A stretch of 39,780 bases of DNA from Burkholderiales bacterium (GTDB lineage: Bacteria; Pseudomonadota; Gammaproteobacteria; Burkholderiales; JAEUMW01). The notes under the pieces are model-generated. The model was not told the DNA's origin. It made no database searches and worked only from the letters and a program-made list of their open reading frames with translations. Shown in pieces: positions 20,724-26,070 of this stretch (position 1 is the first letter of the stretch; every line of letters starts with the position of its first letter). Both the position numbers and the translations under genes were made by a program. The DNA lies in the NCBI GenBank assembly GCA_016791285.1, contig JAEUMX010000030.1, positions 1-39,780 of the forward strand. Reading direction: 5' to 3'.

Positions 20724-21028
20724 CCGAATCTCCTGCAGAGCCGCTCGCCGATCGCGAATGCGGGTCGCCCCAGACCCGACTGCTTATTCGTAACGCCCAT
20801 GTTTCACTCTCCTGCCATGCATACCATTGATGTGGGCGTTGCGATCGGGGCCCAACGCTACGCTTCGGGCGCGGAGTCAGCGGGAGCGACGCAGGAGCAG
20901 ACGCTGGAGGCCGTCGCCTGCAAGTGATTGATACTGATGCGAGGCTCCCGTTTCCGGCAGGCTTGGTAGCTTTCGCTTACCATCATAAGGATGTCGCATC
21001 CGACACGAGTCAGAAAAAGGAGCCTCTC
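20724..21028. other. Intergenic region at left edge of accessory island
   Basis: No gene is seen. The left half holds the amidohydrolase leader. From about 20930 the sequence becomes richer in A+T and contains two short inverted repeats (GGTA...TACC at 20966-20982 and GGATG-TCG-CATCC around 20990-21002) just before the IS110-type start codon. IS110 elements carry their bridge RNA in this position, but whether a usable RNA is encoded here cannot be judged by eye. Confidence 0.4.
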
Positions 21029-21203
21029 ATGCGATTCTATACCCAGCAGCACAAGCATTACTGCGGCATCGATCTGCACGTCCGGATGAACTGTGCTTCC
21101 TGGACGCCGCCGGAACGGTGCTCCTGTCACGTAACGTCGACCCCACGCCTGAGGCGTTTTTGTCAGCAGTGAGAGCCCTCTGCGAGGGATCTCGTGGTGG
21201 TGA
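21029..21203 (+). pseudogene. IS110-family transposase, N-terminal fragment with frameshifts
   Basis: AAAGGAG precedes the ATG at 21029. The reading frame gives MRFYTQQHKHYCGIDLH, the standard start of IS110-family DEDD transposases, with the first catalytic Asp in GIDLH. Homology then jumps to another frame (ELCFLDAAGTVLLSRN and PTPEAFLSAVRAL, about 21089-21180) and once more (RDLVVV, about 21185-21203), after which it stops. Two frameshifts and loss of about 85% of the usual length of roughly 330 residues make it inactive. It marks the left side of the accessory island. No right-hand copy or direct repeat was found by eye. Confidence 0.8.
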
Positions 21204-21272
21204 CTTGACCCAAGAGATTGCCGCATTTAGCGAGTCGTACGGAACCATAATCGCTGCTGAGCCCAAATGGAT

Positions 21273-21301
21273 TTGTGTTACTCTTGAGGCTAGGCTACAT
21301 A
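21273..21301 (+). promoter_or_regulatory. Candidate promoter of the ParB-nuclease-methyltransferase operon
   Basis: TTGTGT (21273-21278) and TACATA (21296-21301) are separated by 17 bases in an A/T-rich stretch directly after the IS110 fragment. Transcription would begin near 21308, only a few bases before the GTG of the first gene. The message could be nearly leaderless, or the true start could be the ATG at 21390. Confidence 0.5.
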
Positions 21302-21311
21302 TTGCTCGTAG

Positions 21312-21548
21312 GTGGAGGTTTCTATTCCCGTTCGCCGTACCAGCCAGTCCGTTCGCGGTGCGACCTCGCGCGCGACGAACCGCGAGAGGATGTTGCACAT
21401 TCGCGTCGGTCCTGAACTGCACCGAGCCCTGCGCGTTATTGTGGCTGAGCAGGACACCACGCTGCAGGAATGGGTGGTGCGAACACTGGCCGACGCGGTC
21501 CGCAAAGCCGGCGCACCCCAATATCCCAGCGGTTCGGGCGGCGGCTGA
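21312..21548 (+). CDS. Small ribbon-helix-helix-like protein, first gene of island operon
   Basis: This 78-residue protein has a C-terminal half (about 27-66) reading MLHIRVGPELHRALRVIVAEQDTT then LQEWVVRTLADAV. That is the strand-helix-helix pattern of small RHH DNA-binding proteins such as plasmid and antitoxin repressors. The start is unsure: GTG 21312 gives 78 residues with a basic N-terminus, and ATG 21390 gives 52. Its stop overlaps the next ATG (TGATG, 21546-21550), so translation is coupled to the ParB-like gene. A role as autorepressor of the operon or partner of the ParB-like protein is inferred from position and fold only. Confidence 0.6.
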   Translation: MEVSIPVRRTSQSVRGATSRATNRERMLHIRVGPELHRALRVIVAEQDTTLQEWVVRTLADAVRKAGAPQYPSGSGGG

Positions 21549-22636
21549 TGGCATCCAGGAGGTCAACGGCGCGCATTGAGCAGGACACCATGGTCCCGGT
21601 GTCCGAGCTGCGCTTCGATCGCGAGAACCCACGGATGCCCAACGTTCTGCTGCGAGACGACGATGAGGTGGTGCGCCATCTCATCGACGACTTCGATGTC
21701 GAGGAACTCGTCCAGTCTATTCTCTCCTCGGGCTGGATCGACTACGAGCCTCTCATTGCTGAGGATCGGACCAACGTCATTTTCGAGGGGAACCGAAGGC
21801 TTGCGGCGCTTCGCCTCATCCGCGACGCGGCGCTGCGCGAGCGTGTCGGATATCGCTTACCGGTCGTGGACGACCCAAAGACCACGCCTGATCAAGTGAG
21901 AGTGCGCTACGTTTCGAACCGGAGGGACGCACGGCGCTTTATCGCCTTCAAGCATATTAACGGCCCCTACAAGTGGGATGCTTTCGCCAAGGCGAAGTAC
22001 GCTGCGGAGTGGCTTGCGGAAGGAGAAAAGACCGACGTCGTTAGTCGAATGCTCGGCGATAACCACAACACCATCCGGCGCCTTGTCATGGGGTACAACG
22101 TGCTCGAGCAAGCGCAGCACGCCGGCTTCGACCTTGAGGACAGGACGAAGAAGCGCTTCGCTTTCTCTCACCTCTACACCGCGGTCTCGCGGCCCGCGGT
22201 TCGGAGTTTTCTGGGGGTCGCTGACGATGAAGACGATGTGCCAGCGGAGCCAGTGCCGTCGGAGAGGCAGGAGCAGCTGCTGCAGCTGATGTCATGGCTC
22301 TATGGACAGGAGAAGAAGAAGGAGCCGACCGTCGTCGTCAGCCAGAACCCGGATCTCAACCAGCTGGTCCGTGTGATCGAGAATAAGGCCGCTTTGGCAA
22401 GCCTCATTAAGTACCGCCGGCTCGATCAGGCGTTTGAAGCGGTGGAGCCGCCCGCTAGTCGGTTCAAAGATGCGCTGATCGCTGCGAACCAACAGTGCGA
22501 GAACGCGCTGGCACTCTCGTCTTACTTTGATGGCGATGAGACCCAACTCGCGATGGTGAAGAATCTTGCAACCACCGTGCGCAGCCTCCGTGACGTTATG
22601 ATGAAGAAGAGCTTTGCCTCGGACGACGACCTCTGA
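21548..22636 (+). CDS. ParB/sulfiredoxin-like N-terminal domain protein with HTH
   Basis: This 362-residue protein has VPVSELRFDRENPRMP at its start and a ParB-type nucleotide-binding motif EGNRRLAALRL at 80-90. A KorB-like helix-turn-helix lies near 160-185 (KTDVVSRMLGDNHNTIRRLV). The C-terminal 150 residues are unassigned. ParB-like domains of this kind occur in chromosome partition proteins (CTPase) and in phage or island proteins with nuclease or modification roles. There is no ParA gene here, so partition is unlikely. The start at 21548 overlaps the upstream stop, and the next gene begins inside the end of this one. A DNA-recognition or licensing role next to the methyltransferase is inferred. 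Confidence 0.75.
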   Translation: MASRRSTARIEQDTMVPVSELRFDRENPRMPNVLLRDDDEVVRHLIDDFDVEELVQSILSSGWIDYEPLIAEDRTNVIFEGNRRLAALRLIRDAALRERVGYRLPVVDDPKTTPDQVRVRYVSNRRDARRFIAFKHINGPYKWDAFAKAKYAAEWLAEGEKTDVVSRMLGDNHNTIRRLVMGYNVLEQAQHAGFDLEDRTKKRFAFSHLYTAVSRPAVRSFLGVADDEDDVPAEPVPSERQEQLLQLMSWLYGQEKKKEPTVVVSQNPDLNQLVRVIENKAALASLIKYRRLDQAFEAVEPPASRFKDALIAANQQCENALALSSYFDGDETQLAMVKNLATTVRSLRDVMMKKSFASDDDL

Positions 22637-23744
22637 CCGGCTGCGCCTCGTGGCGCCCGACCTTAACGCGCGGAGGGCCACACTCGCAGATTGGCTGGAA
22701 CTCCAGGCACTCACGAGCGCAAGGCAGCTAACGTCGATTTCCAGCATCCGATCCCAGGTACGTCGCATGAGCGACGGCAGGGCCTCGGCGACGGAGATCG
22801 ATGCCGACGCTGAGGATGGCGGTGAACCCGAGATCACCGATCGGCTGTCCGATGATCTCGAGGAGAAGGTGGCCGAGGAGCTCGCCTTCCGCGTCGAGTC
22901 GGTCGGCGATGCCTACCCGTTCGAGTTGCTTACGGAGCCAGGAGGCCGGTCGCAGCACCTTAAACTGCGCCAGACCTGGATGACCCCGGAAACCGGCGAA
23001 CTCATCTACGTCTTCTGCCTCCTTGACTCGGCTATCCGCGATCGCCTCATCGCGTACCCGCCGTCGCTGCGACCGCTCATTGCCGCGATCGGTAACATTT
23101 TTCAGATCTGCTCGTGCATTGCCGTCGGCGGCTATATGAACGCTGAGGTCGTGTCGTTCGGCTTCCCGCGCGCGACGGGAGAGAGCTTCCTGCCGGCACT
23201 GCGGGCCGCGTGGAATCAATATGGCTCCTACAGCATTCGCAAGAAGATTGATCATGGCTGGGACGACAAGCTGAAGGACGGTGGCGTTGACATCATCGCA
23301 TGGCGTCACTTCGCGGACCGGTATGCCGCGACGCTGGTGATGTTCGTGCAGGTGGCTTCGGGACTTGGCTGGAAGGACAAGGAAGTTTCCGGCGACGTGC
23401 GTGCGCTGAAGAAGTGGTTTGACGGCCCGACCTTCGAACACTTTCTTCCAGCAATCTGCATCCCGTTTCCGCTGTGGTTCGACCTTGACGAGCCGCCGAG
23501 GGACCAGAGCGGGAGGAAGCTCGCTTTTAGCCAAGGGGTGCAGAACCGCTTTATCTTCCGCGAGGGTAAGTTCGGGATCATCTTCGACCGGGGCCGGATC
23601 GCACGATCCGCGGCGGACGCGCTCAAGGCAGCGGCGGAAAAAGCAATGCGTCACCCCATCGATGGTATCGACCGCGTTGAAGAAGTCGCTGCTTGGGTCT
23701 CGAACGCCATGGCCAAGCTGGCGGAGGTAAGGGTGGCCACATGA
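22614..23744 (+). CDS. Unrecognised protein with possible PD-(D/E)XK-like nuclease core
   Basis: This is a 376-residue soluble protein that I cannot assign to a named family. The stretch DGGVDIIAW (Asp226), then a strand with FVQVASG (Gln246) and WKDK (Lys254/256), resembles the D...(E/Q)x(n)K active site of restriction-endonuclease-like folds, with the Lys displaced. Glu190 in ATGESFLPAL could belong to the same site. The first 75 residues are helical with an acidic stretch. The start is a TTG at 22614, the only start codon after an in-frame stop, giving a 23-base overlap with the ParB-like gene. ATG 22767 would cut a conserved-looking N-terminal helix. Its end overlaps the methyltransferase start (ATGA). 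The nuclease call is a hypothesis. Confidence 0.6.
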   Translation: MPRTTTSDRLRLVAPDLNARRATLADWLELQALTSARQLTSISSIRSQVRRMSDGRASATEIDADAEDGGEPEITDRLSDDLEEKVAEELAFRVESVGDAYPFELLTEPGGRSQHLKLRQTWMTPETGELIYVFCLLDSAIRDRLIAYPPSLRPLIAAIGNIFQICSCIAVGGYMNAEVVSFGFPRATGESFLPALRAAWNQYGSYSIRKKIDHGWDDKLKDGGVDIIAWRHFADRYAATLVMFVQVASGLGWKDKEVSGDVRALKKWFDGPTFEHFLPAICIPFPLWFDLDEPPRDQSGRKLAFSQGVQNRFIFREGKFGIIFDRGRIARSAADALKAAAEKAMRHPIDGIDRVEEVAAWVSNAMAKLAEVRVAT

Positions 23745-24835
23745 GGCACCCCCTTCATTCCATCTGCCCCTACTTCGCTATGTTTCCGGAAGGATTTGTA
23801 CTCGAGCAGTTGTACGCTTACACGCGACCCGGCGACGTCGTCCTCGACCCGTTTTGCGGGCGTGGCACCACTGTGCTCGAAAGCCTGCTGAACAACCGTC
23901 TCGCCTTGGGTGCTGACATCAACCCAGTTGCGGCATGCGTCGCGGGAGCGAAGGCAAATGTGCCCGCGATGACGTCGGTACTACAGCGTGTGGACGACCT
24001 GTACGGGATGTTCGTGGGTCGTACAAGCAGAGAGGAGCCTCCGACGGAGTTCTTCGCCCACTGCTTCCATCGAGAAACCTACGCGGGAGTCGCCTTTCTC
24101 CGTGAGGCTCTCGCTTGGCGCCGGAGCCCCATTGATCGCTTCATCGCGGCGGTAATGCTCGGCATCCTGCACGGTGAGTCCCACCGATCAGGTATGTACC
24201 TTAGCAATCGCATGCCTCGCACCATCAGCACGAAGCCTGACTACTCCGTGCGGTGGTGGCGCGAGCGTAACTTGCGCCCGCCGCACCGCGAAGTCTTTGA
24301 GGTGCTGCGGCAGGCCGTACGCTTCCGCTTCTCTCAACCACCGCCTAAGCGGAGAGGAACCGTCGTGCTGAGCGATGCGAGACGGTGCGGGCAAGTCTTG
24401 AAGAAGCACACCGGCAGCGTGGCGCTAGTTGTTACCTCGCCGCCTTACATCGACACAACTGACTATGCGGAGGACCAGTGGCTCCGGCTCTGGTTCCTCG
24501 GCGGCGATCCGAAGCCAACGCTTCGGTTGCACAAGGATGATCGACATACTCTCTCCGAGACCTATTGGGATTTTCTAGAGGAGGTGTGGCGCGGCTGCGC
24601 TCCGCTGCTACGCGATGCAGCGAGAATTGTCGTTCGAATCGGAGGCACTAAGCTGAGCAAGCCAGAGCTGTTGCATGGGCTGCGCGGGAGTCTCGTGCGT
24701 GGTTTGAGCGGGCGCAGCGTCAGGCAACTGAATCAAGGCAACTCATCCCCAATCACCAAGCGCCAAACGAACTCCTTCCGCCCAGGGACGTCTCCGGATC
24801 GACTGGAACACGACTTCAAGTTCTCCGTCTCATGA
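23741..24835 (+). CDS. Site-specific DNA methyltransferase (N4-cytosine/N6-adenine type)
   Basis: This 364-residue amino-methyltransferase has SAM-binding motif I as DPFCGRGTT (residues 36-44) and catalytic motif IV as TSPPY (232-236). The order I then IV, with a 190-residue gap that probably holds the target-recognition part, is the alpha-like order. TSPPY favours N4-cytosine but N6-adenine is possible. The C-terminus keeps the family ending with a conserved R-Q-T-x-x-F-R-P segment, so the gene looks complete. ATG 23741 overlaps the stop of the preceding gene by four bases. Upstream codons in frame lie inside that gene. In this operon it would protect host DNA from, or mark it for, the neighbouring putative nuclease and ParB-like protein. 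Confidence 0.88.
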   Translation: MRHPLHSICPYFAMFPEGFVLEQLYAYTRPGDVVLDPFCGRGTTVLESLLNNRLALGADINPVAACVAGAKANVPAMTSVLQRVDDLYGMFVGRTSREEPPTEFFAHCFHRETYAGVAFLREALAWRRSPIDRFIAAVMLGILHGESHRSGMYLSNRMPRTISTKPDYSVRWWRERNLRPPHREVFEVLRQAVRFRFSQPPPKRRGTVVLSDARRCGQVLKKHTGSVALVVTSPPYIDTTDYAEDQWLRLWFLGGDPKPTLRLHKDDRHTLSETYWDFLEEVWRGCAPLLRDAARIVVRIGGTKLSKPELLHGLRGSLVRGLSGRSVRQLNQGNSSPITKRQTNSFRPGTSPDRLEHDFKFSVS

Positions 24836-24872
24836 CTTCCACCACAAGGCATGCCTTGATCGGGAGACTGGC

Positions 24873-25145
24873 GTGCAGATCTCGGATCCAAAGGAAGACT
24901 GGGGGCGGCGGGGATTCAGCTGTGACATCTGGACCGACGCGCCGGGACAGGTGTGGCGGGACTTCGTGCATGCCATGGACGAACTGGTGATGCCGCTCGA
25001 AGGCGAAATCGAACTGGAGGTCGGCGGAAGGACATGCCGCCCGCGCATCGGCGAGGAGGTGTTGATCCCGGCCGGCGTGCGGCATACGGTGCGCAATGTG
25101 GGTGACCGCGTGAGCCGCTGGTACTACGGGTACAAGCGCGGGTAG
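24873..25145 (+). CDS. Small cupin domain protein
   Basis: This is a 90-residue single cupin barrel. The first cupin motif is degenerate, with FVHAMDELVMPLEGEIELEVGG. The second is present as PAGVRHTV with its His. Substrate and metal are unknown. The GTG at 24873 is used, but the frame remains open upstream (reading ACLDRETG) without a good start or ribosome site, so the true 5' end may have been altered where the island ends. It is 37 bases after the methyltransferase stop and 13 bases before the Ap4A phosphorylase start, with which it may be co-transcribed. Confidence 0.75.
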   Translation: MQISDPKEDWGRRGFSCDIWTDAPGQVWRDFVHAMDELVMPLEGEIELEVGGRTCRPRIGEEVLIPAGVRHTVRNVGDRVSRWYYGYKRG

Positions 25146-25158
25146 GAGTTTCGACCGA

Positions 25159-26070
25159 GTGAACAAGGACCTCCAACCCGGGACCCTGTGGAATGCCGTC
25201 CTGGCTCGAACCCGGCATGCGCTCGGCCGTGGCGCCTTGCATCCGATCGTGACCGAGACGCGGGTCATCGAACAGCAGGGAATCCCGTTTCTCGTCCGCG
25301 TGGCGACCAACCTGCGCAGGAAGGACGCCGCGCGAGCGCAACAGACGGCGTCGAGCCGAGCGACCGGGAAGCCGATCAACCCGTTCCAGCCCTACGATGA
25401 GGATCTGTTCGTTGCGGACATTTCCGCGACGCACTTCTGCCTCCTCAACAAATATAACGTCATCGATCACCACCTGCTGATCATCACGCGTGAATACGCC
25501 GACCAGGAGCAGCTGATCGGCCTGGAGGACTTTGCGGCGCTGTGGACCTGCCTGGCCGAGATCGACGGCCTCGGGCTCTACAACGCGGGCGGGACGGCCG
25601 GAGCCAGCCAGCCGCACAAGCATCTGCAGATCGTGCCGGTGCCGCTTGCCGCGAGCGGCGCGCCGATCCCGATCGAACGCGCCTTCGATCACCTGCCGCT
25701 CGGCAGGGAAATCACGCAAAGCGCCAGGCTGCCGTTTCGTCATGCCTTCGCCTGGCTCGATCCTTTACGTGCCTCCAGTCCGTCAGCCGCGGCGGAGGAG
25801 ACGCTCCGTCTTTACGGCAGGATGCTCGCCGCGCTCGGCATCGAAGGTGTCGCCGACGATTCAGGGGTTCGGCAGTCCGCCGCCTATAACCTGCTGATCA
25901 CGCGCCGCTGGCTCCTTCTGGTGCCGCGATCGACGGAGTGCTTCGAAGGCATCTCGATCAGTGCCCTGAACTTCGCGGGCTCGCTGTTCGTGCGCGACGA
26001 GAATCAGCTGAAAATTGTCGAGGAGAGAAGACCGCTTACGGTTCTGACCGAAGTCGGTATTCGAGCATAG
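25159..26070 (+). CDS. ATP adenylyltransferase (Ap4A phosphorylase)
   Basis: This 303-residue protein of the Apa1/Apa2 type cleaves diadenosine tetraphosphate with phosphate to ATP and ADP. It has the N-terminal part with NPFQPYDEDLFVADIS, then the GAFT/HIT-like catalytic motif SQPHKHLQ (150-157) with histidines at 153 and 155. The C-terminal DUF4922-type domain includes YNLLITRRWLLLVPRS. It begins at a GTG with GGAG upstream. Its last 67 bases overlap the truncated toxin gene on the other strand (26004-26070). The C-terminus (TVLTEVGIRA) looks normal, so the phosphorylase is complete and the toxin was cut. Confidence 0.9.
   Translation: MNKDLQPGTLWNAVLARTRHALGRGALHPIVTETRVIEQQGIPFLVRVATNLRRKDAARAQQTASSRATGKPINPFQPYDEDLFVADISATHFCLLNKYNVIDHHLLIITREYADQEQLIGLEDFAALWTCLAEIDGLGLYNAGGTAGASQPHKHLQIVPVPLAASGAPIPIERAFDHLPLGREITQSARLPFRHAFAWLDPLRASSPSAAAEETLRLYGRMLAALGIEGVADDSGVRQSAAYNLLITRRWLLLVPRSTECFEGISISALNFAGSLFVRDENQLKIVEERRPLTVLTEVGIRA

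What the first reader, a model, noticed from the sequence alone, without database searches (positions are those of the whole stretch)
21312..24835. Four-gene overlapping operon: RHH-like, ParB-like, putative nuclease and DNA methyltransferase
The genes overlap at every junction (TGATG, a 23-base overlap with a TTG start, ATGA), so they act as a unit. A methyltransferase, a ParB/HTH protein and a protein with a possible PD-(D/E)XK-like site (Asp226, Gln246, Lys254/256) suggest a restriction-modification-like or epigenetic defence system in which a ParB-like protein takes the role of recognition or licensing. I do not know a named system with this set. The methyltransferase motifs are seen. The nuclease assignment and the defence role are inferred.
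Basis: partly seen in the sequence, partly recalled or inferred. Interest (0 to 1): 0.8.

Follow-up and report, generated by a model that had tools for sequence, protein, structure and literature searches.

The report
ParB–nuclease–methylase restriction-like module
The window carries a compact gene module, built from a ParB-like DNA-clamp protein, a probable nuclease of an unnamed family and a DNA-methylating enzyme, that recurs in unrelated bacteria and prophages and most likely destroys unmarked foreign DNA; the ParB–nuclease pair stays together while the methylating enzyme is swapped.

Summary
In detail: four overlapping genes (RHH-like, ParB-like, 376-aa, N6/N4 methyltransferase). The conserved unit is three genes; the RHH gene is local. 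In 61 distinct stretches fetched through the 376-aa protein, a ParB-like gene lies directly upstream (or is fused) in 59; 53 of 57 with enough sequence have a methyltransferase frame flanking the pair. That methyltransferase is the window's N6/N4 type or an unrelated D12 (Dam-like) type; the label changes at least four times on the nuclease tree. The ParB protein has a ParB/KorB/Noc fold. The 376-aa protein has a probable PD-(D/E)XK core with near-invariant Asp226, Gln246, Lys256 (not 254); two Bacteroidota relatives have Q-x-K and lack Lys256. An E. coli P2-like prophage carries ParB–376-aa–Dam at the gpA–portal defence hotspot. Closest named system: PD-λ-5 (ParB-like N-terminus, D12 methylase); the 376-aa protein matches nothing in Pfam, NCBIfam or PADLOC. 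Best reading: restriction-modification-like defence in which a ParB-type clamp aims a separate nuclease. Defence, cleavage and methylation are inferred. Four of 57 loci keep the pair without a working adjacent methyltransferase, which counts against it.

The parts
21312..21548 (+). Small ribbon-helix-helix (RHH/HicB-like) protein; core probably starts at ATG 21390; likely local regulator of the operon (role inferred)
   Evidence: RHH_10 E 1e-4, Antitox_RHH, HicB, all below Pfam cut-offs; homologues directly upstream of ParB in L004 (same stretch as L001), L005, L006 only
21548..22636 (+). ParB-like protein (362 aa): ParB/Srx N-terminal fold with EGNRRL box, HTH-like middle, helical C-terminal part
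21785..21802 (+). Codons of the invariant E-G-N-R-R-L box (residues 80-85), placed like the ParB nucleotide-binding P motif (Box II)
   Evidence: invariant in 33 and in 32 aligned ParB rows; the placement is from knowledge; P motif/Box II named in PMC12704722 passages
22614..23744 (+). Putative nuclease (376 aa; TTG start): winged-helix-like N-terminal part and probable PD-(D/E)XK core
23289..23291 (+). Codon of Asp226, candidate metal ligand
   Evidence: Asp in 170 of 170 rows with a residue, 171 rows in all
23349..23351 (+). Codon of Gln246, candidate active-site residue (position of D/E in motif III)
   Evidence: Gln in 168 of 168 rows with a residue
23379..23381 (+). Codon of Lys256, candidate migrated catalytic lysine
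   Evidence: Lys in 166 of 168 rows with a residue; the two exceptions (L038, L039) have Lys at 248, giving Q-C-K
23741..24835 (+). DNA methyltransferase of the N6/N4 amino-methyltransferase class, motif order I (DPFCGRGTT, 23846-23872) then IV (TSPPY, 24434-24448); motif names recalled
   Evidence: PF01555 2e-17; PADLOC MTase_II 8.5e-27; motif residues in alignment A3 of 13 rows
21348..21390 (.). Imperfect inverted repeat just before ATG 21390; possible operator, weak
   Evidence: 15-nt arms, 80% complementary; no inverted repeat found upstream of the RHH core in L004, L005, L006

Best explanation
A three-gene restriction-modification-like defence module with a local RHH regulator. The methyltransferase marks host DNA. 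The ParB-like protein is a nucleotide-binding, HTH-bearing DNA clamp that loads on unmarked DNA and recruits or licenses the 376-aa protein, a PD-(D/E)XK nuclease with a D-Q-K active site, which cuts the foreign DNA. Shown by computation here: gene set, linkage, ParB fold, conserved nuclease-like residues, methyltransferase class and its repeated replacement. Inferred: nucleotide binding, target recognition by ParB, cleavage, host protection by methylation, phage defence.
For: Linkage: among 61 distinct stretches (L001 repeats L004), ParB directly upstream or fused in 59 (split in two frames in L016 and L042); the exceptions are L003, where a ParB end piece remains, and L051, a contig edge. 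53 of 57 stretches with enough sequence have a methyltransferase frame flanking the pair: 13 N6/N4, 40 D12. In a draw of 385 genomes of one class, 3 had the nuclease, one of them the centre genome; the two others have ParB adjacent, one with an N6/N4 methyltransferase and one with the end of a D12 gene before ParB. One natural ParB-nuclease fusion of 707 aa in L041. Methyltransferase swaps: the N6/N4 label needs 5 changes on the nuclease tree, at least 4 forced by well supported branches. Folds. Active site. Hotspot: an E. coli copy lies between the replication endonuclease and portal genes of a P2-like prophage, the interval described as an anti-phage hotspot in PMC9122126 (passages); 20 of 5426 E. 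coli genomes hold the trio. The D12 partner of L055 matches PD-Lambda-5_B at E 2e-94, the methylase of a system with tested phage protection (PMC9519451, section 7 read). Operon G+C is 60.9% against 66.1% for the window, as for acquired DNA.
Confidence: 0.57

Rival explanations
1. Mark-dependent restriction: the ParB-nuclease pair is activated by, or reads, the methyl mark or its disturbance, so the methyltransferase is a guide rather than a protector, as in phosphorothioate-sensing systems.
For: Unrelated methyltransferases are exchanged under a conserved ParB-nuclease pair, which suits a reader of methylation status more than a site-matched enzyme; some pairs live without a working adjacent methyltransferase.
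Against: No known mark-reading domain was matched in the ParB or 376-aa protein; 53 of 57 loci keep a methyltransferase. Not tested directly.
Confidence: 0.16
2. Abortive or guard-type system related to PD-lambda-5: loss or inhibition of methylation frees the nuclease, which kills the cell.
For: ParB N-terminus resembles PD-Lambda-5_A (E 1e-18) and the L055 methylase is PD-Lambda-5_B-like; [quoted passage not shown]
Against: The 376-aa protein shares nothing detectable with PD-Lambda-5_A (hhalign probability 0.2%).
Confidence: 0.12
3. Maintenance or partition module of mobile DNA: ParB acts in segregation, and nuclease plus methyltransferase act as an addiction pair.
For: Copies on three very large plasmids and on predicted viral contigs; RHH/HicB-like upstream gene.
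Against: No ParA family is in the part of the neighbour list shown (25 of 98 families for 96 ORFs), which is weak; the window copy lies among genes of ordinary metabolism and signalling.
Confidence: 0.08
4. The 376-aa protein is not a nuclease but a DNA-binding partner with a restriction-like fold that has lost catalysis.
For: Weak structural scores and no canonical (D/E)xK in the family.
Against: D226, Q246 and K256 are conserved in nearly all of 171 rows, and Lys sits at 248 in the two rows that lack K256.
Confidence: 0.1

Closest known systems
PD-lambda-5 (Vassallo et al. 2022; PADLOC PD-Lambda-5_A and _B)
   Same: ParB-like N-terminal part (hhalign probability 99.3 over 197 columns); the D12 methylase of L055 is PD-Lambda-5_B-like
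   Different: Separate 376-aa gene with no detectable counterpart in PD-Lambda-5_A; window methyltransferase is N6/N4 type; ParB lacks the PD-Lambda-5_A C-terminal part
PDC-M38A (PADLOC candidate family, no description given)
   Same: Best PADLOC match of the window ParB protein, E 4e-20, over residues 51-352
   Different: The match covers 60-359 of a 715-residue profile; the 376-aa protein matches no PADLOC model; no paper in the library names PDC-M38
Type II restriction-modification
   Same: Methyltransferase beside a putative PD-(D/E)XK nuclease in one operon
   Different: A ParB-like third protein in 59 of 61 stretches; unrelated methyltransferases exchanged under one nuclease family
GmrSD / DUF262 type IV enzymes
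   Same: ParB-type domain working with a nuclease (PMC12373910 and PMC12839542, passages)
   Different: EGNRR where GmrSD has DGQQR; no HNH, DUF1524 or DUF262 match; methyltransferase partner
ParB-CTPase-fold proteins fused to methyltransferases
   Same: ParB fold coupled with N6_N4 methyltransferase (PMC12704722, passages; phrog_498 matches both window proteins)
   Different: Here separate genes plus the 376-aa protein; the passages seen do not mention such a partner

Membership tests
PD-lambda-5 | Protein A matching the PD-Lambda-5_A profile over most of its length | tested here: not met
   best PD-Lambda-5_A match covers profile 6-233 of 454; hhalign 197 columns of 475
PD-lambda-5 | Protein B, D12-type methylase | tested here: not met
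   window methyltransferase is PF01555 type; PD-Lambda-5_B is not among the best 25 of 56 PADLOC rows, so any match is weaker than E 7e-6; the relative L055 does match, E 2e-94
Type II restriction-modification | Methyltransferase gene adjacent to nuclease gene | tested here: met
   window; 53 of 57 relatives; nuclease nature itself inferred
Type II restriction-modification | Both enzymes recognise the same DNA site; cleavage of unmethylated DNA | not testable with these tools
   needs methylation calling and cleavage assays
PD-(D/E)XK superfamily | Core of strands and helices with catalytic residues on adjacent strands | tested here: inconclusive
PD-(D/E)XK superfamily | Conserved D, D/E/Q and K active-site residues | tested here: met
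   D 170 of 170, Q 168 of 168, K256 166 of 168 rows with a residue, two carrying Q-x-K instead; the superposition on a known active site was not done
ParB-CTPase (ParB/Srx) fold | ParB/Srx fold with HTH | tested here: met
ParB-CTPase (ParB/Srx) fold | NTP binding or hydrolysis | not testable with these tools
   invariant EGNRRL box only
GmrSD (DUF262) type IV | DUF262 domain with DGQQR and an HNH or DUF1524 nuclease | tested here: not met
   no such Pfam match in any of the four proteins at E up to 1; note that PF02195 (ParB) did not match either, so Pfam is insensitive here

The most novel reading that the evidence does not exclude
A new class of restriction system in which an NTP-gated ParB clamp, not the nuclease, senses whether DNA carries the host mark and then delivers a D-Q-K nuclease, possibly at a distance; because sensing is separate from cutting, non-homologous methyltransferases can be plugged in, so specificity travels with the methyltransferase cassette.
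Probability: 0.25. Interest if true: 0.88.

Novelty: new variant of a known kind. Interest (0 to 1): 0.63.

Why it matters
If true, a DNA-segregation clamp fold would serve as the self/non-self sensor of a restriction system, and one nuclease family would work with unrelated methyltransferases, which classical restriction theory does not expect. The E. coli P2-like prophage copies make it testable in laboratory strains. It also points to a probable nuclease family missing from the Pfam, NCBIfam and PADLOC libraries scanned here.

Tried and rejected
Searching phage records with the 376-aa protein gave nothing; sequence searches of the PDB gave nothing convincing for it. A counterpart of the 376-aa protein in PD-Lambda-5_A was sought by hhalign and rejected. 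Enrichment near known defence genes: of 106 neighbour ORFs selected (at least 200 aa, within five genes, loci L004-L041 except L008, L018 and L041, which the gene table does not cover), 96 were scanned; 10 were left out (one for size, six as near-copies, three already scanned). Each of the 25 PADLOC families listed (of 49 at E up to 1e-15) was matched by one ORF; there was no control set, so no enrichment is claimed. No inverted repeat like that before ATG 21390 was found in three relatives. No sigma-70-like promoter was found in 20900-25200. None of seven L040 neighbours matched a methyltransferase in Pfam at E up to 0.001. The window's own genome is not held. Paper searches for this gene set or its nearest names gave no listed title or abstract that describes it; some lists were cut (15 of 128,927; 15 of 32), only five papers were opened (passages of all five, section 7 of PMC9519451), the library holds open-licence papers only, and figures and supplements were not readable, so the E. 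coli trio may well be listed in a supplement of PMC9122126 or PMC9519451.
Full report
What is there. The window holds four head-to-tail genes with overlapping ends: 21312-21548, 21548-22636, 22614-23744, 23741-24835. The first is a short ribbon-helix-helix protein with sub-threshold Pfam matches; the second has no Pfam family but matches phrog_3694; the third has no Pfam, PADLOC or NCBIfam match and only two phage families of unknown function; the fourth is a DNA methylase of the N6/N4 class. The G+C of the operon is 60.9% against 66.1% for the window. Of 20 window ORFs scanned outside the operon, 12 match a Pfam family, none of them a defence or mobile-element family. So it looks like a cassette acquired into an ordinary stretch of genes.

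Linkage. The 376-aa protein has 357 database relatives at E up to 0.001 (120 listed). An alignment of the window protein with 27 of them (A1) brought 38 genome loci and 21 viral loci; three plasmid loci came. One plasmid stretch repeats a genome one, leaving 61 distinct stretches besides the window; some are near-copies, and with the window they form 39 clusters at 70% identity. A ParB-like gene lies directly upstream, or fused, in 59 of 61 (split into two frames in L016 and L042); L003 keeps only an end of ParB beside a split nuclease frame, and L051 begins at the nuclease. Four stretches end within 520 bases of the nuclease (L015, L021, L037, L048). Of the other 57, 53 have a frame matching one of the two methyltransferase profiles beside the pair: 13 of the window's N6/N4 type and 40 of the D12 type. 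The remaining four are L024, L025 and L040, with none found, and L029, with a D12 remnant full of stops. In L038 and L039 the methyltransferase lies before ParB. The L016 frame is a chimera with another protein, and L014 is cut by the contig end. The stretches were picked through the nuclease, so these numbers say what accompanies the nuclease, not the reverse. A less biased draw, 385 genomes of one class, gave the centre genome plus two: both with ParB adjacent, one with an N6/N4 methyltransferase, one with the end of a D12 gene before ParB at the stretch's edge. So the family is rare and scattered there, as defence genes often are.

Methyltransferase exchange. On a maximum-likelihood tree of 48 nuclease rows the N6/N4 label needs five changes, at least four forced by well supported branches; L011 (N6/N4) and L018 (D12) are sisters with full support. 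L038, L065, L040, L016 and L010 have long branches and unsure places, and L029 was counted as D12 although its copy is broken.

Defence context. In E. coli the ParB, hypothetical protein and DNA adenine methylase trio is in 20 of 5426 complete genomes. In the one copy whose surroundings I read it lies between the replication endonuclease and the portal gene of a P2-like prophage. Passages of PMC9122126 describe that interval as a hotspot of anti-phage systems; PMC9519451 (passages) also speaks of P2 defence hotspots. By gene clusters, 11 of the 58 distinct stretches in the gene table (L008, L018 and L041 are not in it) have both flanks of that kind (flank identity inferred). Against this, neighbours of bacterial loci showed few defence genes.

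Nearest known system. The ParB N-terminal part aligns with PD-Lambda-5_A (probability 99.3 over 197 columns) but the 376-aa protein does not (0.2%). The D12 partner of L055 matches PD-Lambda-5_B; other D12 partners were not scanned. [quoted passage not shown] I read the module as a relative of PD-lambda-5 in which the effector is a separate protein.

Mechanism and confidence. Best reading (0.57): the methyltransferase marks self DNA; the ParB clamp loads on unmarked DNA; the nuclease is recruited and cuts. The exchange of unrelated methyltransferases is the puzzle: either both kinds mark the same site, or ParB senses status rather than sequence. The four loci without a working adjacent methyltransferase are a real difficulty for plain restriction. 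No biochemical step is shown.

Noticed in passing
window 21029-21172: Reading frame beginning MRFYTQQHKHYCGIDLH resembles the start of IS110-type transposases (recalled; no Pfam match for the 82-aa ORF); perhaps a transposase remnant just upstream of the operon.
   Followed up: partly
L007 8663-8866 and L015 2839-3084: In place of the RHH gene, two relatives have an excisionase-like helix-turn-helix protein upstream of ParB (label from recall), so the small DNA-binding regulator may be exchangeable too.
   Followed up: no
L041 8837-10960: ParB and nuclease are one 707-residue frame in a Brevundimonas assembly.
   Followed up: partly
L038 6710-10873 (and the alike L039 216-4379): A second ParB-like gene (partial PD-Lambda-5_A match, E 5e-14, L038 scanned only) and a D12 methylase directly precede the ParB-nuclease pair, a possible composite of two systems.
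   Followed up: partly
L031 6339-7775: A protein matching PD-Lambda-5_A over nearly its full length (E 6e-122) sits about 0.9 kb upstream of the ParB of the pair; its family is large, 1031 relatives at E up to 0.001.
   Followed up: partly
L003 9812-11770, L016 8910-12144, L029 11014-11721: Decaying copies: L003 has a frame-split nuclease, a ParB end piece and an open D12 gene; L016 a split ParB and a methyltransferase joined to another protein; L029 open ParB and nuclease frames beside a D12 remnant with stops.
   Followed up: partly
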